NCBI RefSeq assembly: GCF_030733745.1
Contig: NZ_JASHIK010000011.1
Span: forward strand, 62,001 to 126,000
Length of the DNA stretch: 64,000 nt
Source: Stappia sp. MMSF_3263
GTDB taxonomy: Bacteria; Pseudomonadota; Alphaproteobacteria; Rhizobiales; Stappiaceae
Direction: 5' to 3'
Position 1 is the first letter of the stretch. Each line of letters starts with the position of its first letter. Position numbers and translations under genes: made by a program. Shown in pieces: positions 47,678 through 62,484 of the stretch. Under the pieces are notes generated by a model. It was not told the origin of the DNA and made no database searches. It was given only the letters and a program-made list of their open reading frames with translations.

Positions 47678-47907
47678 GGCGCTGAAACCGATATGCCAGG
47701 TGGGGGGAAGCGGACGGTCAACGCTTAGAGCGGGCGGTGCGGTTTTACAATCTTGTGGCGGTACCCGGGCAACGTGGTTCCTGCCATCCTGCCACGGCGC
47801 ATTGCGGTCCCAAGCGGGGCGATTTGCCCCCCTGTACTGTGGACAGACGGGCCAAATGCGGTCAGATTGCACCACTTTCCGAAGGTTGCATATTACGGGA
47901 AACAGCA

Positions 47908-49623
47908 ATGGTCGACAAAGCGGGCGCGCGACACGGTTCGGTGGTGTCCGAGGCACTGCGGTCCCTGAGGGCGGCGCTTGCGGGCACCGGTGGCCTCAGC
48001 CTCCTGATCAACCTGCTGATGCTGACCGGCCCGCTGTTCATGCTTCAGGTCTATGACCGGGTTCTGGCCAGCGGGTCCGTGCCGACACTGGTGGTGCTCG
48101 GCGGGCTGACGGCGGTGCTGTTCATCTTCTTCGGCCTGTTGGAAATGCTGCGCGGCCGCATCCTCGCCCGCCTCGGGCAAAGGGTCGATGCCAGGCTCTC
48201 GGCCATTGCCTACCGGGTGTCGAACCGCCTGCCGTTGATGCTCGGCCAGCGCGGCGAGGTGGTGCGCCCGGTCCAGGATCTCGACGCGCTGCGCCATTTC
48301 CTGTCCGGCGCCGGCCCTTCTGCGATCTTCGATCTGCCCTGGATGCCGGTCTACCTGGCGATCGTCTATCTGTTCCACCCCGTGCTCGGCTATGTGGCGA
48401 TTGCCGGTGCGCTGGTGATCTGCGCGTTGATCGCGCTCAACGAGGCCTTTTCGCGCGGGCCCGCTGCGGAGGCTGCGCGCGAGGGCGCGCTGAGGTCCGC
48501 CCATGTGGAGACAGGCCGGCGCAATGCCGAAGCCGTGCGCGCCATGGGCATGGGTGAGGCGCTGAAGACGCGCTGGGAGGAGGCGAACGACCGTTTCCTG
48601 GTCAAGCAGCGTATCGCGACCGACCGGATGACGCTGTTCGGCTCCACCATCAAGGCCTTCCGCTTCCTGCTTCAATCGACAATTCTCGGTGTCGGCGCCT
48701 GGCTTGCCATCGGCCAGGAGATCACGCCGGGCGTGATGATCGCCGCCTCGATCCTGACCTCGCGGGCGCTGGCGCCGGTCGAACAGGCAGTCGGTCACTG
48801 GCGCGGTTTCGTGACCGCACGGCAAGGGCTTGCCCGCCTGCGCCAGACGCTTGGCGACGAGACGCTGGCGGAACCGCGCCTGGCCCTGCCGCTGCCGGAG
48901 AAGAGCCTGAAGCTGGAGCAGGTCTTCTGCGCGCCGGTGGGCCTGCGCGAGCCGCTGGTGCACGGGGTGAGCTTTGTGCTCAATGCCGGCGACGGGCTCG
49001 GCATCATCGGCCCCTCGGGCTCTGGCAAGTCGACGCTGGCTCGGGCCATTGTCGGCGTTGTGCCGGCGATGCGCGGGGCGATCCGGCTGGACGGGGCCGA
49101 GCTTTCCCAGTGGCCGGACGAGCGTATCGCCCGTTTCATCGGCTATCTGCCGCAGGACATCCAGCTGTTTGACGGCACGATCGCGGAAAACATCGCCCGC
49201 TTCGATCCGCAGGCGCGCGACGAGGACGTGATCGAGGCGGCGAAGCTGGCCCAGGTGCACGAGATGATCGTTGGGTTGCCGGACGGCTACAACATGCCGA
49301 TCGGCGGTGCCGGACTGACGCTGTCGGGGGGGCAACGGCAGCGGATCGCGCTCGCCCGCGCGCTGTACCGCAATCCTTTCCTCGTGGTGCTCGACGAGCC
49401 GAACTCGAATCTCGACGCGGACGGCGAGGCGGCCCTGACCCAGGCGGTCGCGGCTTTGCGCCAGAAGGGTTCGATTGTCATTGTCATCGCCCACCGGCCG
49501 AGCGCGATCGCCGCCGTCGATACGATCCTGCTGCTCCAGGAGGGACGCGTCGTTGCCCTCGGACCGAAGAGCGAGATCCTGAAGCAGGTGATTGCGCCGG
49601 CGCGGCAGCAGGGGGTGGCCTGA
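47908..49623 (+). CDS. Type I secretion system ABC transporter (PrtD/HlyB family, no peptidase domain)
   Basis: The 571-residue protein has a six-helix membrane domain (LINLLMLTGPLFMLQVYDRV at the start) and a nucleotide-binding domain with [33 protein letters not shown] and the IAHRP H-loop. Lack of an N-terminal C39 peptidase places it in the PrtD-like subgroup that exports RTX-type proteins with a C-terminal signal. ATG 47908 gives the usual N-terminus. The partner fusion protein starts 1 bp after its stop. Confidence 0.93.
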   Translation: MVDKAGARHGSVVSEALRSLRAALAGTGGLSLLINLLMLTGPLFMLQVYDRVLASGSVPTLVVLGGLTAVLFIFFGLLEMLRGRILARLGQRVDARLSAIAYRVSNRLPLMLGQRGEVVRPVQDLDALRHFLSGAGPSAIFDLPWMPVYLAIVYLFHPVLGYVAIAGALVICALIALNEAFSRGPAAEAAREGALRSAHVETGRRNAEAVRAMGMGEALKTRWEEANDRFLVKQRIATDRMTLFGSTIKAFRFLLQSTILGVGAWLAIGQEITPGVMIAASILTSRALAPVEQAVGHWRGFVTARQGLARLRQTLGDETLAEPRLALPLPEKSLKLEQVFCAPVGLREPLVHGVSFVLNAGDGLGIIGPSGSGKSTLARAIVGVVPAMRGAIRLDGAELSQWPDERIARFIGYLPQDIQLFDGTIAENIARFDPQARDEDVIEAAKLAQVHEMIVGLPDGYNMPIGGAGLTLSGGQRQRIALARALYRNPFLVVLDEPNSNLDADGEAALTQAVAALRQKGSIVIVIAHRPSAIAAVDTILLLQEGRVVALGPKSEILKQVIAPARQQGVA

Positions 49624-49624
49624 A

Positions 49625-50947
49625 ATGACACGCGGTGACACGGTGTCCGAAGCGACCAGCGACCGCATGCTGACGCGTAGCATTCGCCGGCATCTCCTGG
49701 TGGCACTGGTGCTTGCCTTCCTGCTCGTTGGCGGCGTCGGGGCCTGGGCGGCGCTGACGGAAATTTCCGGCGCCGTGGTGGCGAGCGGTACGGTGGTGGT
49801 GGAAAGCAACGTCAAGGATGTGCAGCACCGCGAGGGCGGCATCGTCGCCGAGGTGCTGGTGCGCGACGGCGACAGGGTCGCGGCGGGCGACCTGCTGGTG
49901 CGTCTCGACGACACGGTGACGCGCGCCAATCTGGCGGTGATCACCCGCCAGCTTGTCGAGCTTGGCGCGCGCCAGGCGCGGCTGGTGGCCGAGCAGACCG
50001 GCGAGGGGGGAGTGGATTTTTCGACCGGCGGTTATGACGGGCCGGGCCGGGCGGAGATCGAGGAGAGCCAGCAGGCCCTGTTCGCGGCACGGAGCAGCAC
50101 GCTTGCCGGTCGCAAGCAGCAGCTCGGCGAGCAGATCGTCCAGTTCGAGCGCCAGATCGAGGGCTTCGCCGCGCAGCGCGACGGAAAGGGCGAGGAAATC
50201 CGGCTGATCGAGGATGAGCTGCGCGACCTGGAGGACCTGTTCGCCAGAAAGCTGATTTCCCGCAACCGGGTGACGGCGCTGCGGCGCGACCGGGCACGGC
50301 TGATCGGCGAGCGCGGCGGCTACGTGGCGCAGATCGCGCAGGCGCGGGAGGCGATGAGCGAGCGGCGCATCCAGGTGCTGCAGCTGGACGACGAGCGCCG
50401 CGCCGAGGTCTTGCAGGAACTCCAGGAGGTGCGTGCCCGTATCGCCCAGCTGGAGGAGCAGAAGATCGCCGCCGAAGACCAGCTCAGCCGCATCGAGATC
50501 CGCGCGCCGCGCGGCGGCTACGTGCACCAGCTTGCCGTGCACACGATCGGCGGCGTGGTGGCGCCGGGCGAAACGGTGATGCGCATCGTCCCCCAGGCCG
50601 ACCAGCTTGTCGTCGAGGCGCAGATCCCGCCGATCAGCATCGACCAGATCGGTACCGGACAGAAGGCGCGGATCCGCTTTCCGAGCTTCGACCAGCGGGT
50701 GACGCCCGAGGTGCTGGCGCATCTGGCCAGTATCGCGCCCGACCTCAGCCGGGACGAGCGCACAGGCACGGACTACTACACCGCCCGGCTGACCATCGAC
50801 GAGGGAGAGCTTGCCAAGCTCGACGGCAAGGCGCTCCTGCCCGGCATGCCGGTGGAGGTTTTCGTGGAGACCCAGGAGCGCACCGTGCTCTCCTATCTGG
50901 TCAAGCCGCTCGGCGACCAGATCGCGCATGCCATGCGCGAGCGCTGA
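49625..50947 (+). CDS. Type I secretion membrane fusion protein (HlyD/PrtE family)
   Basis: The 440-residue protein has a short cytoplasmic tail, one membrane helix (LLVALVLAFLLVGGVGAWAAL, here split at its ends), a lipoyl-like half (VQHREGGIVAEVLVRDGDRV), a long coiled coil (about residues 115-280) and the closing lipoyl half and beta-barrel (IRAPRGGYVHQLAV). It bridges the ABC transporter to a TolC-type channel. Neither TolC nor an RTX substrate is encoded nearby, so both must come from elsewhere in the genome. Confidence 0.93.
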   Translation: MTRGDTVSEATSDRMLTRSIRRHLLVALVLAFLLVGGVGAWAALTEISGAVVASGTVVVESNVKDVQHREGGIVAEVLVRDGDRVAAGDLLVRLDDTVTRANLAVITRQLVELGARQARLVAEQTGEGGVDFSTGGYDGPGRAEIEESQQALFAARSSTLAGRKQQLGEQIVQFERQIEGFAAQRDGKGEEIRLIEDELRDLEDLFARKLISRNRVTALRRDRARLIGERGGYVAQIAQAREAMSERRIQVLQLDDERRAEVLQELQEVRARIAQLEEQKIAAEDQLSRIEIRAPRGGYVHQLAVHTIGGVVAPGETVMRIVPQADQLVVEAQIPPISIDQIGTGQKARIRFPSFDQRVTPEVLAHLASIAPDLSRDERTGTDYYTARLTIDEGELAKLDGKALLPGMPVEVFVETQERTVLSYLVKPLGDQIAHAMRER

Positions 50948-50980: not shown

Positions 50981-52063
50981 TCAGGTCACGCGGCCGCGCG
51001 CGGGAATGGCGATCTCCTCGATGGTGCCGTCGGGCCTTTTCAGGAAGGCGGTGTCGAAGAGGTTGGAGACCACGCAGACATGGTTCGGCACGATATGGAC
51101 ACGGTCGCCGACCGCAAGGCTGCCGGCGGGTGTCTCGATGGTGCCATGCTCCTCGCTGAGCGCGACGATCCTGGCCTGCGGATGGCCGATGAGGCTCCCG
51201 TGATCGGTCAGGCCTAGAAGATCCGAGGACAGGGCCTTGGACCCGGCGTCGACGATGGCGCGGGTCGGCGTCGGTAGGCTGACCACGGTGGCCTCGACGA
51301 CGAGGGCGCAGTCCTCAAGCGTGCAGGCGCCGCGTTCCACCAGCGAGCGGTCATTGTAAATATAGGTGCCGGCCCGGTACTCGGTCACAAGGCTCTTTTC
51401 GCCGTTCGGTGCGCCTGCCGACCACATGTCGGGCGAGCCGCCCGAGGAGATTTCCGGACAGGCAATGCCGCGCTCCGCCAGAGCCGCAAGTGTTACGCCC
51501 ATGAAGCGCTCGACATCGGCCGCCCCGCCGGGGGCAGGGTAGGTCATCAGTCCGGCGAAGACGAGGCCGGCAGCGGTGTCGATCCGCGCGGCCAGCGCCG
51601 CGGCCTCTTCCGGCGTCTGCACACCGCAGCGCCCGGCGCCGGTGTCGCACTCGACCATCACGTGAAGTTTTGCGGGCCCGTCGGCGAAAGCCGCGGCGAG
51701 ACCGTCGACGGTGACCGTGCTGTCGGCGACGACCGCAAGGCGCTTCAGTCGACCGGCCAGCGCCTTGAGGCGGGCAAGCTTGGAGGCCCCGAGAATGTTG
51801 AAGGTGATGAGGATGTCGTCGAGCCCGGCATCGGCCATCACCTCGGCCTCGCCGATCTTCTGGCAGGTGATGCCCCGGGCGCCGGCCTCGATCTGAGCCT
51901 TGGCGAAGAGCGGCAGCTTGTGCGTCTTGATATGCGGGCGCGACTTGACGCCATGGCCTTCGAGATGAGCCTGGAAGCGTGCGATGTTGCGCCGGGCGAC
52001 GGCTTCGTCGATGACGACGGCCGGCGTTTCGGCGATGGGGCTTTCGGGCGCTTCAGCGCGCAT
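50981..52063 (-). CDS. DSD1 / D-threonine aldolase-fold PLP enzyme
   Basis: The 360-residue protein is a fold-type III PLP enzyme. The Schiff-base Lys lies in SRPHIKTHKLP, and a metal site His-x-Cys is visible in HIVPNHVCVVSN. These are the marks of the D-serine dehydratase/D-threonine aldolase family. It would dehydrate or cleave D-3-hydroxyamino acids. ATG 52063 overlaps the MlrC-like gene by 11 bp and it is the last gene of the dpp operon. A dehydratase would release an enamine, the substrate of RidA encoded at the other side of the divergon. Aldolase and dehydratase cannot be told apart by eye. Confidence 0.86.
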   Translation of the reverse strand: MRAEAPESPIAETPAVVIDEAVARRNIARFQAHLEGHGVKSRPHIKTHKLPLFAKAQIEAGARGITCQKIGEAEVMADAGLDDILITFNILGASKLARLKALAGRLKRLAVVADSTVTVDGLAAAFADGPAKLHVMVECDTGAGRCGVQTPEEAAALAARIDTAAGLVFAGLMTYPAPGGAADVERFMGVTLAALAERGIACPEISSGGSPDMWSAGAPNGEKSLVTEYRAGTYIYNDRSLVERGACTLEDCALVVEATVVSLPTPTRAIVDAGSKALSSDLLGLTDHGSLIGHPQARIVALSEEHGTIETPAGSLAVGDRVHIVPNHVCVVSNLFDTAFLKRPDGTIEEIAIPARGRVT

Positions 52064-53564
52064 GGAGGCGTTCCTGTCCGGTGTCGTTCGCATGCGGGTC
52101 CTCGACGCGCGGCCAGATGGCGCGGGTGAGGTTGCGGTACTCGTTTTTCGCCGGATCGCTCGGATAGGGTCCGTCGACAGCCGCGTAGAGGATGTCGGAG
52201 GCGATCCGCGAGAACGCATCGTGGAAGTGATTGGTCGACTTCACAACCAGGATTTTCTTCGAAAGCGGATCGATCCCCATGTTGGAAAAGGCGTCCGGGC
52301 TGAAGATCTGCGAACGCACGGTGTTGAGCACGACGGCGATGCCGGCGACGCGGATGGTGACGGAATCGCCGAGCGGGACGACGCTTGTGCCGAAGCTCTG
52401 CACCGCGTCGCGCATGACCTTTTCCACGTGCACCTGGGCATCGATCGGCTCGCCCGCGGCGGCCGACATCTTGCCGCCGAAGCGCAGCGGCAGGTGGGCA
52501 TCCTCGCCGGCGGAAATGCAGGTGCGCACGGCAATTGGATCCCAGATCGAGGCAAGCGCCGCGTCGGAGACGCCGCGCGCGATCATCTCGCGCAGGACAA
52601 TGGTGGAATCGCCGGGCACGCCGCCGCCGGGATTGTCCCAAACGTCGGCGATGACGACGGGTGCGCCGCCGCCGTTGGCGGCAAGGGCCGCCGCCGTGTC
52701 AAGGGCTTCGGCGGGGGTGAGGAACTCCGGCCGCGTGCGACCGCGGAAGGAGTAGAGCTCCATGCCGAGGCGTTCCGCCAGCCGGTCCCCGGCGGGCGCA
52801 TCGTCATCGCTGACGACGACGATGCGGGAACCGAGATCAGGCACATCGGCGGCCATGAAGCCGTGAATGGCGGAGACGGAGAGGATGCCGTCATGCCCTT
52901 CAAGCGCCTTCATCCGGTCGACGAAACCACGCATCGGCTGGCGGCTGGTCGGCAACACCTCGATCATGCGGCAGTCGAAGACGGAGATGCGCGGGCGAAT
53001 CTCGCCGGTCGAGGCACGATGGGCGAGATCGACGAGGCTTTCCGCCGCGATGACGAAATCGGTGTGCGGGAATTCCTTGAAGACAACGACGATGTCGGCG
53101 TTGTCGGTGCGTTTCGCGCTCAGGTGGCTGTGCGGATCGAAGGTAACCCCGACGATGGCGTTCGGGCCGACGATGCGGCGCACGCCCTCGATGATCTCGC
53201 CCTCGCAGTCGAGGCAGTTCTCCGCCACCATGGCGCCGTGCAGGCCGAGCAGAACGATGTCGAGCGGCATGGCCGCGCGCACTTCCTCGAGCATCTGGTC
53301 CCTCAGGAACTCCCAGGTGCGGCCGTTGACGATGCCGCCGGGTTCGGCCCAGGTGGCGGTGCCCTCGATCACCTGCCAGTCGTATTGGCGGGCACGTTCG
53401 CGTGCGACCGGGAAGACGGCGCTGCACAGCGTCGGCGTCGGCGGATGTGCGCCCGGAGGAGCATAGAAGCTGTCCTTGAAGTCCTGCAGGTCCGTGCGGA
53501 GCGGCGAGAAGGTGTTGGTCTCCGTTGCGAGAGATCCGACGAAGACACGTTTAGGCGCGGCCAT
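52053..53564 (-). CDS. M81-family metallopeptidase (MlrC-like)
   Basis: The 503-residue protein matches MlrC/DUF1485: KRVFVGSLATETNTFSPL at the start, the metal-site segments IVLLGLHGAMVAE and TFDPHSHLS, and ADVWDNPGGGVPGDST later. MlrC from microcystin degraders cleaves small linear peptides containing D-amino and beta-amino acids; most homologues act on unknown substrates. ATG 53564 overlaps the dppF-like stop (TGATG). Its place between a peptide importer and a D-amino-acid enzyme points to cytoplasmic cleavage of an imported peptide-like amide with D-residues. Confidence 0.9.
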   Translation of the reverse strand: MAAPKRVFVGSLATETNTFSPLRTDLQDFKDSFYAPPGAHPPTPTLCSAVFPVARERARQYDWQVIEGTATWAEPGGIVNGRTWEFLRDQMLEEVRAAMPLDIVLLGLHGAMVAENCLDCEGEIIEGVRRIVGPNAIVGVTFDPHSHLSAKRTDNADIVVVFKEFPHTDFVIAAESLVDLAHRASTGEIRPRISVFDCRMIEVLPTSRQPMRGFVDRMKALEGHDGILSVSAIHGFMAADVPDLGSRIVVVSDDDAPAGDRLAERLGMELYSFRGRTRPEFLTPAEALDTAAALAANGGGAPVVIADVWDNPGGGVPGDSTIVLREMIARGVSDAALASIWDPIAVRTCISAGEDAHLPLRFGGKMSAAAGEPIDAQVHVEKVMRDAVQSFGTSVVPLGDSVTIRVAGIAVVLNTVRSQIFSPDAFSNMGIDPLSKKILVVKSTNHFHDAFSRIASDILYAAVDGPYPSDPAKNEYRNLTRAIWPRVEDPHANDTGQERLHAR

Positions 53565-54558
53565 CAGGCGGCCTCCCCGAGAAGCTGGCCGGCGTGATGG
53601 CAGGCGGTGGATTGGCCCTCGCCCATGTCCGCGATTTCCGGCCGGGTGGTGCGGCAGATATCGGTGGCGAAGGGGCAGCGGGGATGGAAGGCGCAGCCCG
53701 GCGGCGGGGCGGCGGCATTGCCCGGCTCGCCGAGGTCGGCGGCAGGCTGGCGTCCCGGGCGGATGCGCGGGATCGAGGCGAGCAGCAGGCGCGTATAGGG
53801 ATGCGCCGGCCGGCTGAACAGGAGGGATTTTGGCGCCGTCTCGACGATGCGCCCGAGATACATGACCGCAACCCGGTCGGAAATGTGCCGGACGACGCCA
53901 AGATCGTGCGAGATGAACAGCATGGAGATGCCGCTTTCGCGCTGCAGGTCCTTGATCAGGTTGAGCACCTGCGCCTGGATCGAGACGTCGAGGGCGGAGA
54001 CGGCCTCGTCGGCGATGACGAGGCGCGGCTCGACGATCATCACCCGTGCGATGCCGATGCGCTGGCGCTGGCCGCCGGAGAATTCGTGCGGATGGCGGTG
54101 CATCACCTTCGGATCGAGGCCGACCTTGGTGAGCGTGTCGGCGATGCGGGCGCGGATCGCCTCGCGCCCCTTCGCCAGGCCGTGGATGCGCACCGGCTCG
54201 GCCAGGGTCTGCTCGATGGTCAGGCGCGGGTTGAGCGAGGCGAAGGGATCCTGGAAGATCATCTGGATGTCACGGCGCAATGGCCGGAAGGCCGAGGCCG
54301 AGAGAGGCAGGATGTCACGTCCTTCAAGCAGAGCCTTGCCCGCGGTGGCCGGTTCCAGCTTCGTCAGGGTGCGCCCGACCGTCGACTTGCCGCAGCCGCT
54401 CTCGCCGACAATGCCGAGCACCTCGCCTTTCGCAAGGTCGAAGGAGACGCCGTCGACGGCCTTCAGAACGCGCGCCTTGCCGCCGAACAGTCCGGCCTTG
54501 CGCAGGGAGAAGTGGGTCTTCAGGTCACGGACCTGAAGGAGGGGTGTCGCGGTGTCGC

Positions 54559-54562
<4 letters not shown>
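53564..54562 (-). CDS. Dipeptide/oligopeptide ABC ATPase (DppF-like)
   Basis: The 332-residue ATPase has GESGCGKSTVGRT, the signature FSGGQRQRIGIARV, Walker B LVIADEAVSALD (Ala for the usual Pro/Thr after Glu), H-loop LFISHDLGVV and the C-terminal oligopeptide-type extension with four Cys-like ligand positions (GCAFHPRCPFATDICR). It pairs with DppD. Its start overlaps dppD (ATGA) and its stop overlaps mlrC. Confidence 0.93.
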
Positions 54563-55548
<986 letters not shown>

Positions 55549-55552
55549 CGCT

Positions 55553-56404
55553 TCAGACCCCCTTGATGTCGTTCTTGAAGCGCGGGTCGATGCTGTCGCG
55601 CAGTGCGTCGCCGACCAGGTTCATGGAGAACACCGAGAGGATGATCAGCGCACCGGGGAAGAGCAGCAGCCAGGAGGCGCGGGTCACGTAGATGCGCGAT
55701 TCCGACAGCATGTTGCCCCAGCTCGGGACCTCGGGCGGCAGGCCGAGGCCGAGGAAGTCGAGGGCGGCCGCCTGGAGCTGGGCGAAGGCGAAGATGAAGC
55801 TTGCCTGGACGAGCAGAGGCGAGACCAGGTTGGGCAGGATGTGGCGGAACAGGATGCTGGCATTGCCGGCGCCCGAACAGGTGGCGGCGTCGACGAAGAC
55901 CTCTCCCTTCAGCTTCAGCGTCATGCCGAACAGGATGCGGGCGGTGGTCGTCGCATAGACGATGCCGATGACCAGCACCGTGTTGACGACGCTGCGCTCC
56001 AGAAGCGTCATCAGCACCAGGGCGAGCAGCAGCGCGGGAAAGGCCATGAGAACGTCGACGACGCGCATCAGGACATTGCCGAGCCGGGTGAAATAGGCCG
56101 ACAGCATGCCGGTGAGCCCACCCGCGACGAGCGCCACGAAGACGGAGCCGATGCCGATGACGATCGCCATGCGCGCGCCGTAGATGCTGCGCGAGAAGGT
56201 GTCGCGGCCGAAGTGGTCGGTGCCGAACAGGTGTTCGGCGCCGGGCGGGGTAAGGCGCACGACCGGATCGATCTCGAGCGGATCGTAAGGCACGATCAGC
56301 GGCGCGAAGACGGCGGCGAGGACGACGAGGCAGAGCCAGGCGAGGCCGAGGCTCGCCAGCGGGCGGCCCTTGAAGATGCGTCCCGTGACGGCGAGCGCGG
56401 TCAT
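55553..56404 (-). CDS. Dipeptide/oligopeptide ABC permease (DppC-like)
   Basis: The 283-residue permease has the DppC N-terminal soluble extension and helix, the HLFGTDHFGRDTFSRSIYGAR segment (quoted in part) and the EAA-type loop VDAATCSGAGNASILFRHIL, with six membrane segments. It forms the pore with DppB. Confidence 0.93.
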   Translation of the reverse strand: MTALAVTGRIFKGRPLASLGLAWLCLVVLAAVFAPLIVPYDPLEIDPVVRLTPPGAEHLFGTDHFGRDTFSRSIYGARMAIVIGIGSVFVALVAGGLTGMLSAYFTRLGNVLMRVVDVLMAFPALLLALVLMTLLERSVVNTVLVIGIVYATTTARILFGMTLKLKGEVFVDAATCSGAGNASILFRHILPNLVSPLLVQASFIFAFAQLQAAALDFLGLGLPPEVPSWGNMLSESRIYVTRASWLLLFPGALIILSVFSMNLVGDALRDSIDPRFKNDIKGV

Positions 56405-56462
56405 GCCGAGCCTCCTTGCGCGACGGTTGAAGGGGCGAGTGCGAGGGGTGCGCGCGGACCGT

Positions 56463-57410
56463 TCATTTCAGCGACACCCGCGGGTCGAGCCAGGCGTAGG
56501 CGAGGTCGACGAGAAGATTGATGACCATGTAGAGCACCACGATGATCAGGATGACGCCCTGGATGACGGGGTAGTCGCGCCGCAGGATCGACTGGACGAC
56601 GAGGCGGCCGATGCCGGGCAGGGAGAAGACGGTCTCCGTCACCACGGCCTCCGAGACGAGGGCGGCGAAGGTGAAACCGAAGGCGGCCGCGACCGCGATC
56701 AGCGCGTTGCGGAAGACATGCTTCGTCGCGACCTTCCAGGGGGCGAGGCCCTTGGCGCGGGCGGTGCGTACATGATCCTCGCGCTGCACGTCGAGCATGG
56801 AGGCACGTACCAGGCGGATGATCAGCGCCGCATTGGGGGCGGCCAGCGTGAAGCTCGGCAGCAGCAGGTAGCGCAGGTTGGCGAGCCCGCCGTCGTCGGA
56901 AACGGAGGGATAGCCGGACGAGGGCAGCCAGCCGAGCGTCACGGAGAAGATCAGGATCAGGTAGAGGCCGAGCCAGAAGGTCGGCACCGAGGCGAAGAGC
57001 ATGGCGCCGCCGGAGGTGATCTGGTCGACCCAGGTGCCGTGGCGAGTGGCGGCGACGACGCCGATCGGCACGCCGAGAAGGACGATCCAGACCATCGTCA
57101 TGACGGCCAGCAGGATCGAGGTTTCCGCGCCGTCGGCAATGACGCCCGTCACCGGCGTGCGGAAGAAGATCGAGGTGCCGAAATCGCCCTGCAGCACGTT
57201 GCCCAGCCATAGCAGGTACTGCTGGTAGAGCGGCTGGTCGAGACCCATTTCGCGGGTCAGCGCGTCGATCTCCTCCGGTGTCGCGCTGTCGCCGAGCAAC
57301 ACCGCTGCCGGGTCGCCGGGGATCAGGTGAACGAAGAGGAAGACGAGCAGGGAGGCGGCCAGCAGCGTCGGCACGAGCGCCAGCAGTCTCCGCGTCGCAT
57401 ATCCGAGCAT
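56463..57410 (-). CDS. Dipeptide/oligopeptide ABC permease (DppB-like)
   Basis: The 315-residue permease starts MLGYATRRLLALVPTLLAAS and has LGLDQPLYQQYLLWLGNVLQ, then the EAA loop HVRTARAKGLAPWKVATKHV and IVLYMVINLLVDLAYAWLDP at the end, classic DppB. It is separated from the binding-protein gene by 117 bp with a hairpin and from dppC by 58 bp. Confidence 0.94.
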   Translation of the reverse strand: MLGYATRRLLALVPTLLAASLLVFLFVHLIPGDPAAVLLGDSATPEEIDALTREMGLDQPLYQQYLLWLGNVLQGDFGTSIFFRTPVTGVIADGAETSILLAVMTMVWIVLLGVPIGVVAATRHGTWVDQITSGGAMLFASVPTFWLGLYLILIFSVTLGWLPSSGYPSVSDDGGLANLRYLLLPSFTLAAPNAALIIRLVRASMLDVQREDHVRTARAKGLAPWKVATKHVFRNALIAVAAAFGFTFAALVSEAVVTETVFSLPGIGRLVVQSILRRDYPVIQGVILIIVVLYMVINLLVDLAYAWLDPRVSLK

Positions 57411-57433
57411 GAGCGTATCTTTCCGCGATGTGT

Positions 57434-57459
57434 CCGGGGGCGGCCAAGTCCGCCCCCGG
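57434..57459 (-). repeat. 10-bp perfect GC hairpin between dppA- and dppB-like genes
   Basis: CCGGGGGCGG (57434-57443) pairs with 57450-57459 over a 6-nt loop. There is no downstream U-run. It sits about 68 bp after the binding-protein stop. Confidence 0.8.
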
Positions 57460-57527
57460 CCCTTGCGTTCAGTGTCGTCCGACGGACGGCGTTTCGCAAA
57501 GGCCGGAGGGGACCGGGAGGACGTCTG

Positions 57528-59069
57528 TTACTTGGAGACGTTCCAGAAGTGCGGCCAGATCAGGGTCGCTTCCCCGAGGCCTTCAAGACGGGGCGAGGCG
57601 ATGTTGTAGGTGTAGATGTCGCCCGTCTTCATTGTCGGCACCTGCTCGTAGATCAGGGCCTGGATCTCGGACCAGAGCTTCTGCCGCTCGGCCGGGTCGG
57701 AAGAAGCGGTGAACTTTGCCTTCAGGGCCGCCTTTTCCGGGGTTGCCCACCAGCCGGGGTAATTGTCGTTCATGACCGAGATCAGGATCGGGTCGGGAAC
57801 GAAGCCGTGATGGGTGAAGAACAGGTCCCACTGGTCCGGCTGGGAGCGCTTCTTGATCAGCGTCGCCCAGTCATAGACCTGCAGGTCGATGTTGAAACCG
57901 GCCTGGGCGAGCTGCTTGGTGTAAACGATCGCCGTGTCGTAGTGGAAGGCGTAGTTGGTCGACACCATGAACTTGATCGGTTCGCCATTGTAGCCGGCCT
58001 CGGCCGCCAGCGACTTGGCGGCTGCCGCGTCGCCCTTGCTGAAATTGTCCGTACCTGCGTCGGTGTACCAGACATTGCCTTCGGGCTGGAACGAGCCGTT
58101 GGCGCGCCACAGCTTTTCCGGGCCAATGGCGACCTGAAGGGCCGGGGTCTTGTTCAGTGCGGTCTGGATGGCGCGGCGAAGGGCGAAGTTCTCCTTCAGC
58201 GGGCCGTCCTTGGAGTTCAGGAATACGAGGCCGAAGATCGGGCCGCCATTGAGGATCGTCTTCACGTCCGGGTTGGCGTCGAGATCGGCGAAGAGATCGC
58301 CGGGGATGTTCTCGGCATAGTCGTAGTCGCCGGCCTGCAGGCCGCTGACACGGGTGCCGACGTCGGGAACCGGGATGAAGCGCAGGGCATCGAACTCGGC
58401 CTTGCGCGCGCCGCCATAGCCGCTCGGCTCGCCGGAGGGCGAATCGTAGTCGTCGAAGCGGACGAGTTCGACGTGACGGTTCGGCTGCCATTCGCCAAAG
58501 CGGTAGGGGCCGGTGCCGATATACTGTTCGGGTGCGATCGGCTCCTTGCCGGCGCCTGAAGCGACGGATGCCGGATAGATCGCCGGGCCGCCGTTGATGA
58601 AGGCCATCAGGTTCTTCCAGGGGCCGAAAGGCTCCTTCAGGCGGATGGTGACCTCATGGTCGCCGGTTGCCTCGACGCTCTCGACATTGGCGAACAGCAG
58701 GCTGCCGCGCGAGCCGTGCTCGCCCCAGCGCTGCAGGGAGGCGACGACGTCGGCGGAGGTCATGTCCTCGCCATTGTGGAAGGTGACGTCCTTGCGCAGG
58801 GTGATGACGATGGTCTTGCCGCCGTCCTCGATGCGGTCGCTCTCGGCCAGCAGCGGCACGGGCGCATTGCTCGCATCGAACGTGTAGAGCCCCTCGAACA
58901 TGTGATGGGCGATGGTGGTCGCGAGATCCGAGGTGACCACGTGCTGGTCAAGGCTGGGCGGCTCGCCGATCGTGGCGTAGCGCAGGGTGCCGGCGGCGAA
59001 CGCCGTGCTGGCCATCGACGTCGCAAGGGCGGCGGCGAGCACCGTTTTCCAACGATTCTTCCGAAACAT
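57528..59069 (-). CDS. Dipeptide/oligopeptide-type ABC binding protein (DppA-like, SBP_bac_5)
   Basis: The 513-residue protein has a Sec signal (MFRKNRWKTVLAAALATSMAS..., cleavage near AFAAG) and the SBP_bac_5 fold: LRYATIGEPPSLDQHVVTSD, VTFHNGEDMTSADVVASLQR, GTGPYRFGEWQPN. It binds a peptide or peptide-like ligand in the periplasm. ATG 59069 follows CTGGAGGAGTG. It is the first gene of the operon dppA-B-C-D-F, mlrC and dsd1-like, divergent from ridA and rpiR. Confidence 0.92.
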   Translation of the reverse strand: MFRKNRWKTVLAAALATSMASTAFAAGTLRYATIGEPPSLDQHVVTSDLATTIAHHMFEGLYTFDASNAPVPLLAESDRIEDGGKTIVITLRKDVTFHNGEDMTSADVVASLQRWGEHGSRGSLLFANVESVEATGDHEVTIRLKEPFGPWKNLMAFINGGPAIYPASVASGAGKEPIAPEQYIGTGPYRFGEWQPNRHVELVRFDDYDSPSGEPSGYGGARKAEFDALRFIPVPDVGTRVSGLQAGDYDYAENIPGDLFADLDANPDVKTILNGGPIFGLVFLNSKDGPLKENFALRRAIQTALNKTPALQVAIGPEKLWRANGSFQPEGNVWYTDAGTDNFSKGDAAAAKSLAAEAGYNGEPIKFMVSTNYAFHYDTAIVYTKQLAQAGFNIDLQVYDWATLIKKRSQPDQWDLFFTHHGFVPDPILISVMNDNYPGWWATPEKAALKAKFTASSDPAERQKLWSEIQALIYEQVPTMKTGDIYTYNIASPRLEGLGEATLIWPHFWNVSK

Positions 59070-59197
59070 TTCACTCCTCCAGTGCAAGGGACCTCTGGCG
59101 GCTCCTATGGTGTCAGGCCGGATGATCCGCGGTCGCGCGCAATGTGGCGGGACGGCGAGCATCCAACGATCGCCGACTCTCTGGTCGGTTGCTCGTT

Positions 59198-59214
59198 ATG
59201 TAAAAAATTTTCAT
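59198..59214. promoter_or_regulatory. Candidate RpiR operator A
   Basis: ATGTAAAAAATTTTCAT is a 17-bp near-palindrome on the dppA side of the divergent promoter. It matches operator B at 14 of 17 positions, with centres 73 bp apart, about seven helical turns. Confidence 0.7.
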
Positions 59215-59270
59215 AAATGTAGGAAACTGTCAAACTGGAATTTGAAAAATCCGCTAAACTGCGGTAGATA

Positions 59271-59287
59271 ATGAAAGAAACTTTCAT
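59271..59287. promoter_or_regulatory. Candidate RpiR operator B
   Basis: ATGAAAG-AAA-CTTTCAT is a perfect 17-bp inverted repeat ending 18 bp before the ridA ATG. It overlaps the end of a possible -10 (GATAAT, 59267-59272), so binding should block ridA-rpiR transcription. RpiR family operators are commonly of the TGAAA/TTTCA type. Confidence 0.75.
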
Positions 59288-59305
59288 ATCGAATGGAGAG
59301 ACAGC

Positions 59306-59695
59306 ATGACCCTAGGCATTATTCGCTATGATACGGCCGATCTGGCGGCGGGCGGACAGAAGCGGCCCTTCGCCAAGGCGGTGCGCGCCGGCGACTTTGT
59401 CTATGTCTCCGGCCAGGTGCCGGCGGACGGGGGGGAGATCATCACCGGCGGCATCGTGGCGCAAACGGAAAAGGTGGTGGAAAACATCAAGGCCGTTCTG
59501 GCGCTGGCCGGCTGCGGGCTGGAGCATGTGGTCAAGGTCAATGTCTGGCTCGACGATGCCCGCGACTTCTCCAGCTTCAACGCCGTGTTCGAGCGGCATT
59601 TCATCGACAATCCTCCCGCCCGCTCGACGGTCCAGTCGCCGCTGATGGTGGATGCCAAGGTCGAGATGGATGTCATCGCCTACAAACCCGAATAA
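59306..59695 (+). CDS. RidA family imine/enamine deaminase
   Basis: The 129-residue Rid protein has the fold and motifs KRPFAKAVRAGDFVYVSGQV, VENIKAVLALAGCGLEHVVK and the C-terminal RSTVQSPLMVDAKVEMDVIA. In RidA proper an Arg in the R-S/T segment contacts the substrate carboxylate; PARSTVQ keeps that Arg. It hydrolyses reactive 2-aminoacrylate-type imines. It is divergent from the operon holding the DSD1/D-threonine-aldolase-fold enzyme, which could generate that intermediate. ATG 59306 follows GGAGAG. Confidence 0.9.
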   Translation: MTLGIIRYDTADLAAGGQKRPFAKAVRAGDFVYVSGQVPADGGEIITGGIVAQTEKVVENIKAVLALAGCGLEHVVKVNVWLDDARDFSSFNAVFERHFIDNPPARSTVQSPLMVDAKVEMDVIAYKPE

Positions 59696-59747
59696 CCTTG
59701 CACGCGACGCGCGCCGCTCCGGCGTGCGGCAAGAGGGCGGGGAGGCC

Positions 59748-60626
59748 GTGGCCAAGGTCATCGACATCATTGCGCAGCTGCGGCGGCTGGATGGTGCGTT
59801 CCCCAAGCGCGAGCAGCGGGTGGCGGACTATGTGCTCGCGAACCTGGAGACCATCGCCTATCAGCGGCAGAGCGAGATCGCGGCCGGGGCAGGCGTTTCG
59901 GACGCCACCGTAAACCGTTTCTGCCAGACGCTCGGCTGCGACGGGTTCAAGGACTTCAAGATCCGCTTCGCGCAAAGCGTCGCGGTCTCCTTGCAGTATC
60001 TGGGCGGGCCGGGCAATGACAGCTCGGTCTCCGACCAGCTGGTGGCGCAGGTCTTCGGGGCGCTGGTCGATACGCTCAACACGGCACGCGGGCAGCTCGA
60101 CAGCGCGGCGATACAGGCCGCCATCGATCTGCTTGCCGGAGCGCGGCGCATCATCTTCTTCGGCGTTGGCGGCGGTTCGGCCAACGTGGCCCGGGAAGGG
60201 GCGAACCGCTTCTTCCGTCTCGGCATCCCGGCCGAAGCGCATTCCGACGGCTACCTGCAGCGCATGCTCGCCTCGACGCTGGAGCCGGGCGATGTGGTTT
60301 TCGCGGTCTCGGCCAGCGGCTCGCCGGCGGAGCTGCTCGACAGCGTCGCCATCGCCCGGCAGTACGGAGCCCAGACCTTGAGCCTGACCAAGGCGGGCTC
60401 GGACCTGGCGCTGGCGACGGACATCACCATCGGGGTCGACCTGCCGGAGGATCAGGACATCTTCAAACCGAGCGCGTCGCGGCTGGCCTTTACCGCGATC
60501 GTCGACGTTCTTGCCGCCGGCGCTGCCCGCAAGCGGCCGGAGCGGGTGAAGGAGTACCTGCGCCGTATCCGCACTTCGCTGATGCCGCTGTCCAAGGATG
60601 TCGGGCCGAAGCCGATCGGCGACTGA
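59748..60626 (+). CDS. RpiR/MurR-family transcriptional regulator (HTH plus SIS domain)
   Basis: The 292-residue protein has an N-terminal RpiR helix-turn-helix (FPKREQRVADYVLANLETIA, SEIAAGAGVSDATVNRFCQT) and a C-terminal sugar-isomerase (SIS) domain (RIIFFGVGGGSANVA, FAVSASGSPAELLDSV). GTG 59748 is chosen for its GGGGAGG ribosome site and family start. SIS domains bind phosphosugars or amino-sugar-like ligands such as N-acetylmuramic acid 6-phosphate. It sits 52 bp after ridA and most probably controls both divergent operons at the two 17-bp sites. Confidence 0.9.
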   Translation: MAKVIDIIAQLRRLDGAFPKREQRVADYVLANLETIAYQRQSEIAAGAGVSDATVNRFCQTLGCDGFKDFKIRFAQSVAVSLQYLGGPGNDSSVSDQLVAQVFGALVDTLNTARGQLDSAAIQAAIDLLAGARRIIFFGVGGGSANVAREGANRFFRLGIPAEAHSDGYLQRMLASTLEPGDVVFAVSASGSPAELLDSVAIARQYGAQTLSLTKAGSDLALATDITIGVDLPEDQDIFKPSASRLAFTAIVDVLAAGAARKRPERVKEYLRRIRTSLMPLSKDVGPKPIGD

Positions 60627-60700: not shown

Positions 60701-61294
60701 ATGGGCATGCGTGAGCCGCTTTCCATTCTCGTGATCGATGCCAACAGGATCCGCTCGTCCATCATCGAGCAGGGCCTGCGCGATGCCGGCCATGAGCGGG
60801 TGATCGTCGTCGACAACATGGACGGTCTCGTGCGGCGGATCACCGAGATCGATCCGGATGTCATCGTCATCGATCTGGAAAATCCCAACCGGGACCAGCT
60901 CGAGCACATGTTCCAGGTGTCGCGCGCCGTGCGCCGGCCGATCGCCATGTTTGTCGATCGTTCCGAGAGCGGCGCCATCGAGGCCGCGGTCGATGCGGGC
61001 GTTTCCGCCTATGTGGTGGACGGGCTCAAGCGCGAGCGGGTGAAGCCGATCCTCGACATGGCCATCAGTCGCTTCAAGGCGTTCAGCCGGCTCTCCCAGG
61101 AGCTGGAGGAGGCGCGCACGGAGCTTGCCGACCGCAAGACCATCGAGCGGGCCAAGGGCATCCTTATGCGCAATCGGGGCGTTGACGAGGACGAGGCCTA
61201 TCAACTCCTGCGCAAGGCGGCGATGAACCAGGGGCGCCGGGTTATCGACGTTGCCGAGGGCCTGGTCATTTCAAGCGGACTTTTGGAGAAGTAG
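60701..61294 (+). CDS. nasT: ANTAR-domain response-regulator antiterminator (NasT)
   Basis: The 197-residue protein has an N-terminal receiver-like domain (LSILVIDANRIRSSIIEQGL, VIVIDLENPNRDQLE) and a C-terminal ANTAR RNA-binding domain (RKTIERAKGILMRNRGVDED, AYQLLRKAAMNQGRR). NasT binds a two-hairpin leader RNA and prevents termination when NasS releases it in response to nitrate or nitrite. NasS is encoded 8 bp downstream and a fitting leader lies upstream of the nrtA-like gene. ATG 60701 and ATG 60707 are both possible. Confidence 0.93.
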   Translation: MGMREPLSILVIDANRIRSSIIEQGLRDAGHERVIVVDNMDGLVRRITEIDPDVIVIDLENPNRDQLEHMFQVSRAVRRPIAMFVDRSESGAIEAAVDAGVSAYVVDGLKRERVKPILDMAISRFKAFSRLSQELEEARTELADRKTIERAKGILMRNRGVDEDEAYQLLRKAAMNQGRRVIDVAEGLVISSGLLEK

Positions 61295-61302
61295 GACACG
61301 CG

Positions 61303-62484
61303 ATGAACCGATCCGACGGCGACACGGTGATTGCCGGCTTCATTCCGCTTCTCGACAGCGCGCTTCTGGTCGCGGCGGCCGAACGCGGCTTTGCCGCGGA
61401 GGAGCGCGTCGACCTGCGCCTGGTGCGGGAAACCTCCTGGGCGAACATCCGCGATCGCATCGCCATCGGTCATTTCGACGTTGCCCACATGCTGGCGCCG
61501 ATGCCGATTGCCGCCTCGCTCAACATCACCTCGCTGGCGGTGCCGATGCTGGCGCCGATGACGCTGGGGCTCGGGGGCAATGCCATCACGGTGTCGACAG
61601 GGTTGTGGCGTGCGATGGAGCAGGCCGGTGCGGCCGGCAACGGCGACCCGGCATCGACGGGGCAGGCACTTGCCCGGGCGATCGCGGCGCGGCCGGCGGG
61701 CGCGGCGCGCCTGCGTTTCGGCGTGGTCCATCCCTTTTCCGGGCACGCCTATGAACTGCGCTACTGGCTCGCCGCTTCGGGCATCCACCCTGATCGCGAC
61801 GTGGAAATCACCGTGCTGCCGCCACCATTGATGGCAGACGCGCTGAAGGCCGACCGGCTTGACGGCTATTGTGTCGGCGAGCCGTGGAATACGGCCGCCG
61901 CGCTTGCGGGCACCGGGCGGATTGTCACCACCAAGGCGGCGATCTGGCCAGGCAGCCCGGAAAAGGTGCTGGGCGTGACCCGCAAGTGGGCGGACGCCAA
62001 TGGCGACACGCTGGCGGCGCTCATCCGGGCGCTGGCGAAGGCCGCGATCTGGTGCGGCGATGCGACCAACCATGCGGACCTTGCCGTGCTCCTGAGCGGG
62101 CCGGACTATCTCGACTGCCCGGCCGAATGGTGCCGGCCGGCGCTGAGCGGGCTTATCGCCCTGTCGCGCGATGCCGCGCTCGCGGTGCCCGACTTCCTTT
62201 CCTTCACCGCGCCCGGCGCGCTGCAGCCCTCCACCGATCATGCGCTGTGGTTCTACAGCCAGATGCTGCGCTGGGGGCAGGTGCAGCACGACCCGGCGCG
62301 CGAGGCGATTGCCCGCGAGACATACCGCCCCGATCTCTTCGCTGCCGCCATGCCGAAGACCGGAAAGCCGAGCGCGGGCGCCCGCCCGGGCCAGGCGGGA
62401 CCGCCGCAGCGCTTCTATGACGGGGTCGAGTTCACCCCGCAGGACATTGCCGGCTACGTCGCCGGTTTCCCGATCCGCGCCTGA
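61303..62484 (+). CDS. nasS: Nitrate-sensor protein NasS (NrtA/CmpA-like, cytoplasmic)
   Basis: The 393-residue protein has the NrtA/CmpA fold ([63 protein letters not shown]) but no signal peptide, which defines NasS. It holds NasT inactive and lets it go on binding nitrate or nitrite. The same blocks recur in the NrtA-type protein further on, from which it probably derived by duplication. Confidence 0.92.
   Translation: MNRSDGDTVIAGFIPLLDSALLVAAAERGFAAEERVDLRLVRETSWANIRDRIAIGHFDVAHMLAPMPIAASLNITSLAVPMLAPMTLGLGGNAITVSTGLWRAMEQAGAAGNGDPASTGQALARAIAARPAGAARLRFGVVHPFSGHAYELRYWLAASGIHPDRDVEITVLPPPLMADALKADRLDGYCVGEPWNTAAALAGTGRIVTTKAAIWPGSPEKVLGVTRKWADANGDTLAALIRALAKAAIWCGDATNHADLAVLLSGPDYLDCPAEWCRPALSGLIALSRDAALAVPDFLSFTAPGALQPSTDHALWFYSQMLRWGQVQHDPAREAIARETYRPDLFAAAMPKTGKPSAGARPGQAGPPQRFYDGVEFTPQDIAGYVAGFPIRA

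What the first reader, a model, noticed from the sequence alone, without database searches (positions are those of the whole stretch)
50981..60626. Divergent Dpp importer - MlrC peptidase - DSD1/D-TA enzyme with RidA and RpiR: possible uptake and breakdown of D-residue peptides
Seen: seven coupled minus-strand genes (DppA, B, C, D, F, M81/MlrC-like, PLP enzyme with PHIKTHK and NHVC motifs) face RidA and an RpiR/SIS regulator. Known: MlrC can cleave small peptides containing D-amino acids, DSD1 enzymes dehydrate D-serine or D-threonine to enamine/imine products, and RidA hydrolyses those. Inference: a self-contained route imports a peptide-like compound with D-3-hydroxyamino acids, hydrolyses it and detoxifies the imine. 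I know of no described pathway with exactly this set.
Basis: partly seen in the sequence, partly recalled or inferred. Interest (0 to 1): 0.78.

Follow-up and report, generated by a model that had tools for sequence, protein, structure and literature searches.

The report
Predicted oxidised-aminosugar uptake operon
Nine neighbouring genes in a Stappia-like bacterium look like a system for importing and breaking down an oxidised amino sugar, probably derived from chitin, rather than unusual peptides, and they seem to use a different enzyme for a key step than the pathway already described.

Summary
The genes are real and at the stated place: DSD1-family PLP enzyme, M81 protein, DppF/D/C/B/A-type importer (minus strand) facing RidA and RpiR. 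They form a conserved module. The D-peptide reading is not supported. In relatives the core M81+DSD1+RidA+RpiR recurs while the importer is exchanged (Dpp, TRAP, sugar ABC); KDG-kinase-like genes, GH20 hexosaminidases or, instead of M81, a D-aminoacylase-family gene sit near the same DSD1 in part of the loci. This parallels the gammaproteobacterial ong pathway: N-acetyl-D-glucosaminate is deacetylated, deaminated to 2-keto-3-deoxygluconate (KDG) and phosphorylated. I infer an alphaproteobacterial variant with M81 in OngB's place, a distant DSD1 clade (25-29% identical to ten OngC-like proteins) and ABC or TRAP import. The M81 clade keeps MlrC's zinc ligands but lacks its general base and two aromatic pocket residues. 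Two copies of a palindrome TGWAA-N5-TTWCA lie in the divergent promoter; such sites occur in 44 of 60 RpiR-bearing loci (4 of 43 without RpiR) and 91-139 bp before the sugar-ABC operon in 14 of 20. No substrate was tested; N-acetylglucosaminate is an inference. New variant of a known kind; moderate interest.

The parts
50981..52063 (-). DSD1/D-TA-type fold III PLP enzyme, predicted D-glucosaminate (D-3-hydroxy amino acid) dehydratase/ammonia-lyase
   Evidence: Pfam PF01168 + PF14031; RPHIKTHK and HxC invariant in 18 aligned homologues; HxC as in D-Ser and D-3-hydroxyaspartate dehydratases, HxD in three aldolases
52053..53564 (-). M81 metallohydrolase, predicted N-acetylaminosugar-acid deacetylase
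   Evidence: PF07364 + PF07171; 7ylq fold match TMq 0.83; zinc ligands kept and several MlrC substrate residues replaced in 22 of 22
53564..54562 (-). DppF-type ABC ATPase
54559..55548 (-). DppD-type ABC ATPase
55553..56404 (-). DppC-type permease
56463..57410 (-). DppB-type permease
57528..59069 (-). SBP_bac_5 solute-binding protein, predicted sugar-acid binder rather than dipeptide binder
   Evidence: DppA_dipep model 39.6 bits against cut-off 1005
59199..59213 (.). operator-like palindrome 1, TGTAAAAAATTTTCA
59272..59286 (.). operator-like palindrome 2, TGAAAGAAACTTTCA, 73 bp from the first
59306..59695 (+). RidA-family protein, predicted enamine/imine deaminase
   Evidence: PF01042; TIGR00004 103.3 bits, just under its 106.25 cut-off
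59748..60626 (+). RpiR/SIS regulator (ORF opens at 59652; GTG at 59748)
   Evidence: PF01418 + PF01380; best NCBIfam match HexR, 210.9 bits against cut-off 296

Best explanation
A RpiR-controlled system that imports an N-acetylated aminosugar acid, most likely N-acetyl-D-glucosaminate (GlcNAc1A, the end unit of LPMO-oxidised chitin) or a short oligomer carrying it. The SBP_bac_5 ABC importer takes it up; the M81 zinc enzyme removes the acetyl group to give D-glucosaminate; the DSD1 enzyme eliminates the 3-hydroxyl, giving an enamine; RidA speeds its hydrolysis to KDG and ammonia; an unlinked PfkB kinase (contig C18) and KDPG aldolase finish the route. RpiR binds two palindromes in the divergent promoter, probably as a repressor released by a pathway intermediate. 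Shown by sequence: families, conserved neighbourhood, metal ligands, palindromes, kinase-like and aldolase genes. Inferred: substrate, order of steps, M81 as the deacetylase, RpiR as the binder, repression and its effector.
For: (1) Core recurs while importers change. (2) KDG-kinase-like gene near this DSD1 in 10 of 80 named loci, 13 of all 103 (four of them checked by NCBIfam; 6 changes on the tree); 0 of 40 control stretches. (3) GH20 in 11 of 80 (18 of 103), in TRAP and sugar-ABC lineages (family checked in two proteins); 0 of 40 controls. (4) In L111 and L106 a D-aminoacylase-family gene stands near this DSD1 and M81 is absent (L111's matches PpOngB, 3e-135; L106's is 34% identical to it); L106 also has the Dpp importer and the kinase. 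M81 in 42 and this gene in 2 of 80, together in 0. (5) Dpp-type clusters L115, L124, L125, L129 nest inside the sugar-ABC/GH20 clade. (6) Polar-amino-acid importer loci (4 of 80, plus S. meliloti L133) have no M81, as expected if they import free glucosaminate. (7) Palindrome in 14 of 14 RpiR+Dpp, 9 of 17 RpiR+TRAP and 19 of 25 RpiR+sugar-ABC loci; 91-139 bp upstream of the Gfo/Idh-transporter operon in 14 of 20, elsewhere in the locus in 5, absent in 1. (8) Own genome has a kinase 54% identical to the one between DSD1 and RidA in Phaeobacter and KDPG aldolase. (9) Published ong pathway: OngB, OngC, KdgK, RidA (OngD), RpiR (OngR) (PMC9537276).
Against: No substrate shown. The M81 activity I found in print is on microcystin peptides (PMC9982164, passages), and MlrC residues N41, D341 and K464 are kept in 22 of 22. 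The window cluster has no kinase, GH20 or D-aminoacylase gene; own genome has no GH20 and no LPMO_10 match, so the substrate would come from others. 38 of 80 named loci lack M81 nearby and 26 of 80 have none of M81, RidA, RpiR, kinase, GH20 or D-aminoacylase (some cut by contig ends), 18 of them a Mesorhizobium lineage beside a D-lyxose-isomerase-type gene. Kinase matches stay below NCBIfam equivalog cut-offs. 16 of 60 RpiR loci lack the palindrome. Peptide binders are among the high fold matches of the SBP.
Confidence: 0.58

Rival explanations
1. One reading: the importer takes up small peptides with D-3-hydroxy amino acids, M81 cleaves them, DSD1+RidA break down the released D-Ser or D-Thr.
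For: SBP_bac_5 and M81 families include peptide binders and the peptide-cleaving MlrC; OngC itself also deaminates D-Ser and D-Thr (PMC9537276 section 13).
Against: Importer exchanged for TRAP and sugar ABC types with the core kept; KDG-kinase-like and GH20 neighbours in part of the loci; MlrC general base and two aromatic residues lost; E. coli DppA Asp436 is Phe in 13 of 13.
Confidence: 0.1
2. N-acyl-D-3-hydroxy amino acids that are not sugars (N-acetyl-D-Ser, -D-Thr or 3-hydroxyaspartate): M81 is an N-acyl-D-amino acid amidohydrolase, DSD1+RidA give pyruvate, 2-oxobutanoate or oxaloacetate.
For: D-aminoacylase, RidA and a fold III PLP enzyme occur together in several of the 20 regions fetched around D-aminoacylase-family genes and in L111; DSD1 is nearest in the PDB to D-Thr aldolases and D-hydroxyaspartate enzymes.
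Against: Does not explain KDG-kinase-like genes in several separate lineages, GH20, NagA-like genes or sugar importers under the same palindrome.
Confidence: 0.16
3. Another aminosugar-acid substrate: muramic-acid-related, mannosaminate, galactosaminate, or a sugar-amino-acid opine such as agropinic acid.
For: RpiR/MurR family regulator; SBP fold near AgaA-agropinic acid (6hlx) and a Neu5Ac binder (5z99); GH20, second M81, Gfo/Idh and SDR in the sugar-ABC variant.
Against: KDG as product fits glucosaminate or mannosaminate best (inference); MurNAc etherase and other such genes were not searched for.
Confidence: 0.14

Closest known systems
ong pathway of oxidised chitin, Pseudoalteromonas prydzensis (PMC9537276)
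   Same: RpiR regulator, RidA, fold III PLP D-amino acid deaminase, an amide-hydrolase-family enzyme and an importer; KDG-kinase-like genes and GH20 in part of the related loci
   Different: M81 instead of the D-aminoacylase-type OngB; DSD1 25-29% identical to OngC-like proteins; Dpp ABC, TRAP or CUT1 importers instead of the SSS OngIT; kinase unlinked in this genome; no LPMO_10 or GH20 match in this genome; the paper reports the complete pathway in Gammaproteobacteria and one Achromobacter
Microcystinase C, MlrC (7ylq, M81)
   Same: Fold, zinc ligands, H133, N41, D341 and K464 equivalents
   Different: General base E70 and W59, F67, Q468 replaced in 22 of 22; F96 is Trp
DSD1 / D-threonine aldolase / D-3-hydroxyaspartate enzymes
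   Same: Fold III PLP domains, PHIKTHK region, C-terminal HxC/HxD motif
   Different: Own clade; HxC as in the two dehydratases aligned
Dpp dipeptide importer of E. coli
   Same: ABC families and an SBP-two permeases-two ATPases order
   Different: Score far below the DppA equivalog cut-off; Asp436 equivalent is Phe

Membership tests
ong GlcNAc1A pathway | RpiR, RidA, fold III PLP enzyme, amide-hydrolase-family enzyme and importer clustered | tested here: met
ong GlcNAc1A pathway | OngB, a D-aminoacylase-type amidohydrolase | tested here: not met
   none in the window cluster; own genome no match at E<=1e-70, with 3 of 11 first-look candidates scored
ong GlcNAc1A pathway | OngC clade of PLP enzyme | tested here: not met
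   25-29% identity to ten OngC-like proteins; a further one, L178a, 39%. P. prydzensis OngC itself not compared
ong GlcNAc1A pathway | KDG kinase in the cluster | tested here: not met
   not in the window cluster; unlinked candidate at C18, 134 bits, 54% to the Phaeobacter cluster kinase
ong GlcNAc1A pathway | Acts on GlcNAc1A / glucosaminate | not testable with these tools
   needs enzyme assays
M81 peptidase family | DUF1485 + MlrC_C domains and zinc ligands | tested here: met
MlrC microcystinase | General base E70 and W59/F67 pocket | tested here: not met
   L46, A35, T43 in 22 of 22; NCBIfam MlrC 360 bits against cut-off 999
DSD1-type dehydratase rather than aldolase | HxC motif | tested here: met
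   NHVC; dehydratases 3anu and 3wqc align HxC, aldolases 4v15, 7dib, 6qkb HxD; activity not tested
BhcC 3-hydroxy-D-aspartate aldolase | NCBIfam equivalog cut-off | tested here: not met
   184.6 bits against 690
Dpp dipeptide SBP | Arg383 and Asp436 of E. coli DppA | tested here: not met
   window has T and F; over 13 sequences T in 7 and R in 6, F in 13 (distant alignment, uncertain)
RidA | Rid family domain | tested here: met
   PF01042 101 bits; TIGR00004 just under cut-off; imine deaminase activity not tested
RpiR/HexR regulators | HTH_6 + SIS domains | tested here: met
   HexR model below its cut-off; ligand not tested

The most novel reading that the evidence does not exclude
An M81 metalloenzyme is the aminosugar-acid N-deacetylase of a second, separately assembled oxidative route for chitin-derived aminosugars in Alphaproteobacteria. 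In rhizobial forms the GH20, Gfo/Idh, SDR and sugar importer beside the same core would let the cell make N-acetylglucosaminate itself, a non-phosphorylating GlcNAc pathway into Entner-Doudoroff metabolism that needs no LPMO.
Probability: 0.3. Interest if true: 0.68.

Novelty: new variant of a known kind. Interest (0 to 1): 0.5.

Why it matters
If true, it gives a function to an M81 clade in a family that I know only from microcystin breakdown, extends oxidised-chitin catabolism from mainly Gammaproteobacteria to many marine and soil Alphaproteobacteria, and shows that 'dipeptide transporter', 'microcystinase' and 'D-threonine aldolase' annotations in these genomes mislead. It also offers a testable role for the RidA step, which the ong paper left open (PMC9537276, passage).

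Tried and rejected
D-peptide pathway: rejected as the main reading, see rivals. DSD1 as an OngC orthologue: 25-29% identity to ten OngC-like proteins, rejected. Vibrio plasmid hit (H37, L136) as an ong cluster: rejected, no D-aminoacylase, RpiR or RidA match seen beside it. S. meliloti pSymB hit (L133): a polar-amino-acid importer/IclR/RidA subgroup without M81. Idea that the unlinked kinase on C18 shares the palindrome: no site in the 20-kb stretch around it, and the two exact genome-wide sites of the 16-mer are the two in the window; a third place has two mismatches, and the control pattern gave one. NRPS gene next to the Rhizobium plasmid copy (L134): not followed, seen in one record. Structure models: M81 pLDDT 85.7, SBP only 75.6, so the SBP fold ranking is weak evidence. 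Literature on an M81/DSD1/RidA set or an M81 deacetylase: searches listed none that I could see from titles and abstract starts; some lists were capped (40 of 73) and only open-licence PMC papers are held. PMC11906056 (one passage) concerns Vibrio HexR and added nothing; PMC12343721 (passages) predicts another glucosaminate route in haloarchaea.
Full report
Place. The window is contig 2, 62001-126000, of a 5.02-Mb genome. The best named DSD1 locus found is from Stappia sp. TSB10P1A (78% identity; records very near the window's genome may be left out there), so I call the host Stappia-like. The cluster lies between a type I secretion ABC/HlyD pair and an ANTAR regulator plus NMT1-like protein.

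Observation. All nine genes are there and match their families. Start sites of DSD1, DppA and RpiR probably need shortening. The seven minus-strand genes overlap or are closely spaced.

Conservation. In 87 genomes of the family (69 with any match), the DSD1 search gave a group of close homologues at 49% identity or more, apart from further matches at 37% or less. For the best 29 matches outside the own genome I looked at about 4 kb each: M81 is beside DSD1 in 28; in L012 it was not found, nor in the 20 kb around it (L035). L049, the own genome's second M81 locus, was left out; two pairs of rows have identical DSD1 sequences, being the same genome fetched twice; some loci are cut by contig ends. 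Matches were tblastn hits to a panel over fixed bit scores, midpoint within 9.5 kb. In the 80 named loci: M81 42, RidA 48, RpiR 40, KDG-kinase-like 10, GH20 11, second M81 8, D-aminoacylase-family 2, SBP_bac_5 12, TRAP binding protein 9, sugar-ABC SBP 19, polar-amino-acid SBP 4, IclR 9. With M81 present, RidA is found in 38 of 42 and RpiR in 38 of 42. In 40 control stretches of ten Stappiaceae genomes, taken at round coordinates: M81 1, RpiR 1, TRAP large subunit 2, TRAP binding protein 1, and 0 for RidA, kinase, GH20, SBP_bac_5, D-aminoacylase and the other panel members.

Exchange of importers. The DSD1 tree (105 rows, quick method, 42 of 100 inner branches starred) needs at least 22 changes of importer class (Dpp 17, TRAP 17, sugar ABC 26, polar amino acid 5, none found 39 rows; 'none' counts as a class) and 12 of M81. 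In 8 independent pairs that differ in M81, RpiR goes the same way in 6.3 and the other way in 0.0 on average (median p 0.03, range 0.016-0.22); RidA in 6.0 and 0.5 (median p 0.06, range 0.016-0.45). Dpp-type clusters of Rhizobium-group species (L115, L124, L125, L129) sit within the clade of sugar-ABC/GH20 clusters. The simplest reading is that Dpp-type, TRAP and sugar-ABC importers deliver the same kind of compound.

What compound. Four kinases near DSD1 were checked: three score best against 2-dehydro-3-deoxygluconokinase, the Phaeobacter one against KDG/KDGal kinase, all below the equivalog cut-offs. In the annotated Phaeobacter gallaeciensis plasmid the order is RpiR, TRAP, M81, D-TA enzyme, sugar kinase, RidA. 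GH20 was confirmed by Pfam in L134 (about 10 kb from DSD1, so outside the counts above) and in L090. A NagA-like amidohydrolase in L119 has a NagA_N match. In L111 the order is RpiR, D-aminoacylase family (matches PpOngB), RidA, SDR, DSD1. In L106 a D-aminoacylase-family gene (34% identical to L111's), the Dpp importer, IclR, DSD1 and the kinase are together. This is the logic of the ong pathway. I read its sections 13, 17 and 40 in full, and its outline, abstract and passages of others: OngB deacetylates GlcNAc1A, OngC deaminates GlcN1A to KDG and ammonia, KdgK phosphorylates, OngR (RpiR) represses, and OngD (RidA) is needed for growth with unknown role. OngC also takes D-Ser and D-Thr. PMC7014002 (two passages) shows a similar GH20-linked set in Paraglaciecola.

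Not an orthologous copy. A D-aminoacylase search of 398 genomes of the phylum found 40 with a match at E<=1e-70, the own genome none (3 of its 11 first-look candidates were scored). I fetched 20 regions; L168 and L169 carry RpiR, a fold III PLP enzyme, OngB type, RidA, kinase and GH20. Ten such PLP enzymes are 25-29% identical to the window's; one more, L178a beside RidA, is 39%. The window's clade is 47-70% identical within a sample of ten across importer types. P. prydzensis OngC itself was not at hand. So the Stappia system is a variant with other parts, not the ong cluster itself.

M81. The model matches 7ylq at TMq 0.83. Mapped through the alignment on 22 homologues, MlrC E39, D167, H169, H191 (zinc) and H133 are E15, D143, H145, H167, H109 in 22 of 22. 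The general base E70 and W59, F67, Q468 are L46, A35, T43, H446 in 22 of 22. F96 is Trp, and N41, D341 and K464 are kept, in 22 of 22; S392, S485 and R492 vary. MlrC roles are from PMC9982164 (passages; one passage prints H196 for the fourth ligand). So this clade looks like a zinc hydrolase with a changed pocket. That it is a deacetylase rests on its taking OngB's place, not on a test.

DSD1. Its HxC motif (NHVC) aligns with HxC of a D-serine and a D-threo-3-hydroxyaspartate dehydratase and with HxD in three aldolases; that the motif binds the metal is recalled. The OngC-like proteins also have HxC (SHPC).

Importer. The SBP model is of middling quality (pLDDT 75.6). Its best PDB matches are 8vdx (no ligand in the title) and 6hlx (AgaA with agropinic acid); a Neu5Ac binder and several peptide and nickel binders also match, so fold alone does not decide. 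E. coli DppA Asp436 and Arg383 (dipeptide anchors, recalled; the 8z1z title names both) are not kept in the window protein.

Regulation. The divergent promoter holds TGTAAAAAATTTTCA (59199) and TGAAAGAAACTTTCA (59272), aligned in relatives (8 sequences). The form TGWAA-N5-TTWCA occurs 60 times in 60 RpiR loci (44 of 60 with a site), 4 times in 43 loci without RpiR, and once in 800 kb of control. In the 20 loci with Gfo/Idh and sugar ABC, 14 have it 91-139 bp upstream of the aligned start of Gfo/Idh, the first gene of that operon; 5 have a site elsewhere in the locus and 1 has none. In the own genome the 16-mer has only these two exact sites and one with two mismatches elsewhere; the reversed control pattern gave one. 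RpiR as the binder is inferred; similarity to HexR sites is recalled.

Rest of the route in this genome. Two KDPG-aldolase-family matches, a kinase on contig C18 54% identical to the Phaeobacter one, no GH20 and no LPMO_10 at E<=0.001. So this host would take up soluble products made by others.

Against. 38 of 80 loci lack M81 nearby and 26 of 80 have none of the partners. Eighteen of these are a Mesorhizobium lineage with DSD1 beside a gene of one cluster, identified as D-lyxose isomerase in the one member checked (L086). Sixteen of 60 RpiR loci lack the palindrome. No enzyme was assayed. I put 0.58 on the aminosugar-acid reading; the mended counts did not change it.

Noticed in passing
G000 C5:119179-120063 (L001, L049): A second M81 gene in the same genome, about 31% identical to the window's, beside an SBP_bac_5-like gene; no DSD1 of this clade in the 20 kb around it.
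   Followed up: partly
L134:11952-12434 and other loci of cluster c6 (27 loci): A protein of about 160 aa without a Pfam match lies before M81 in the sugar-ABC form or near DSD1; function unknown.
   Followed up: partly
L101, L112, L120, L123, L133 (S. meliloti pSymB): Same DSD1 clade with a polar-amino-acid ABC importer, IclR and RidA but no M81; could be uptake of free D-glucosaminate.
   Followed up: partly
18 Mesorhizobium loci such as L074, L086: DSD1 of this clade stands divergent to a D-lyxose-isomerase-type gene (Pfam checked in L086), with none of the usual partners.
   Followed up: partly
L045, L119 and similar: Rhizobiales-type clusters carry GH20, a second M81, SDR, Gfo/Idh and a sugar ABC importer around the same core.
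   Followed up: partly
window 60701-62484: ANTAR-domain regulator and NMT1-like binding protein follow RpiR directly, resembling a nitrate assimilation start (the resemblance is recalled).
   Followed up: no
window 47737-50947: Type I secretion-like ABC protein and HlyD-type fusion protein flank the other side.
   Followed up: no
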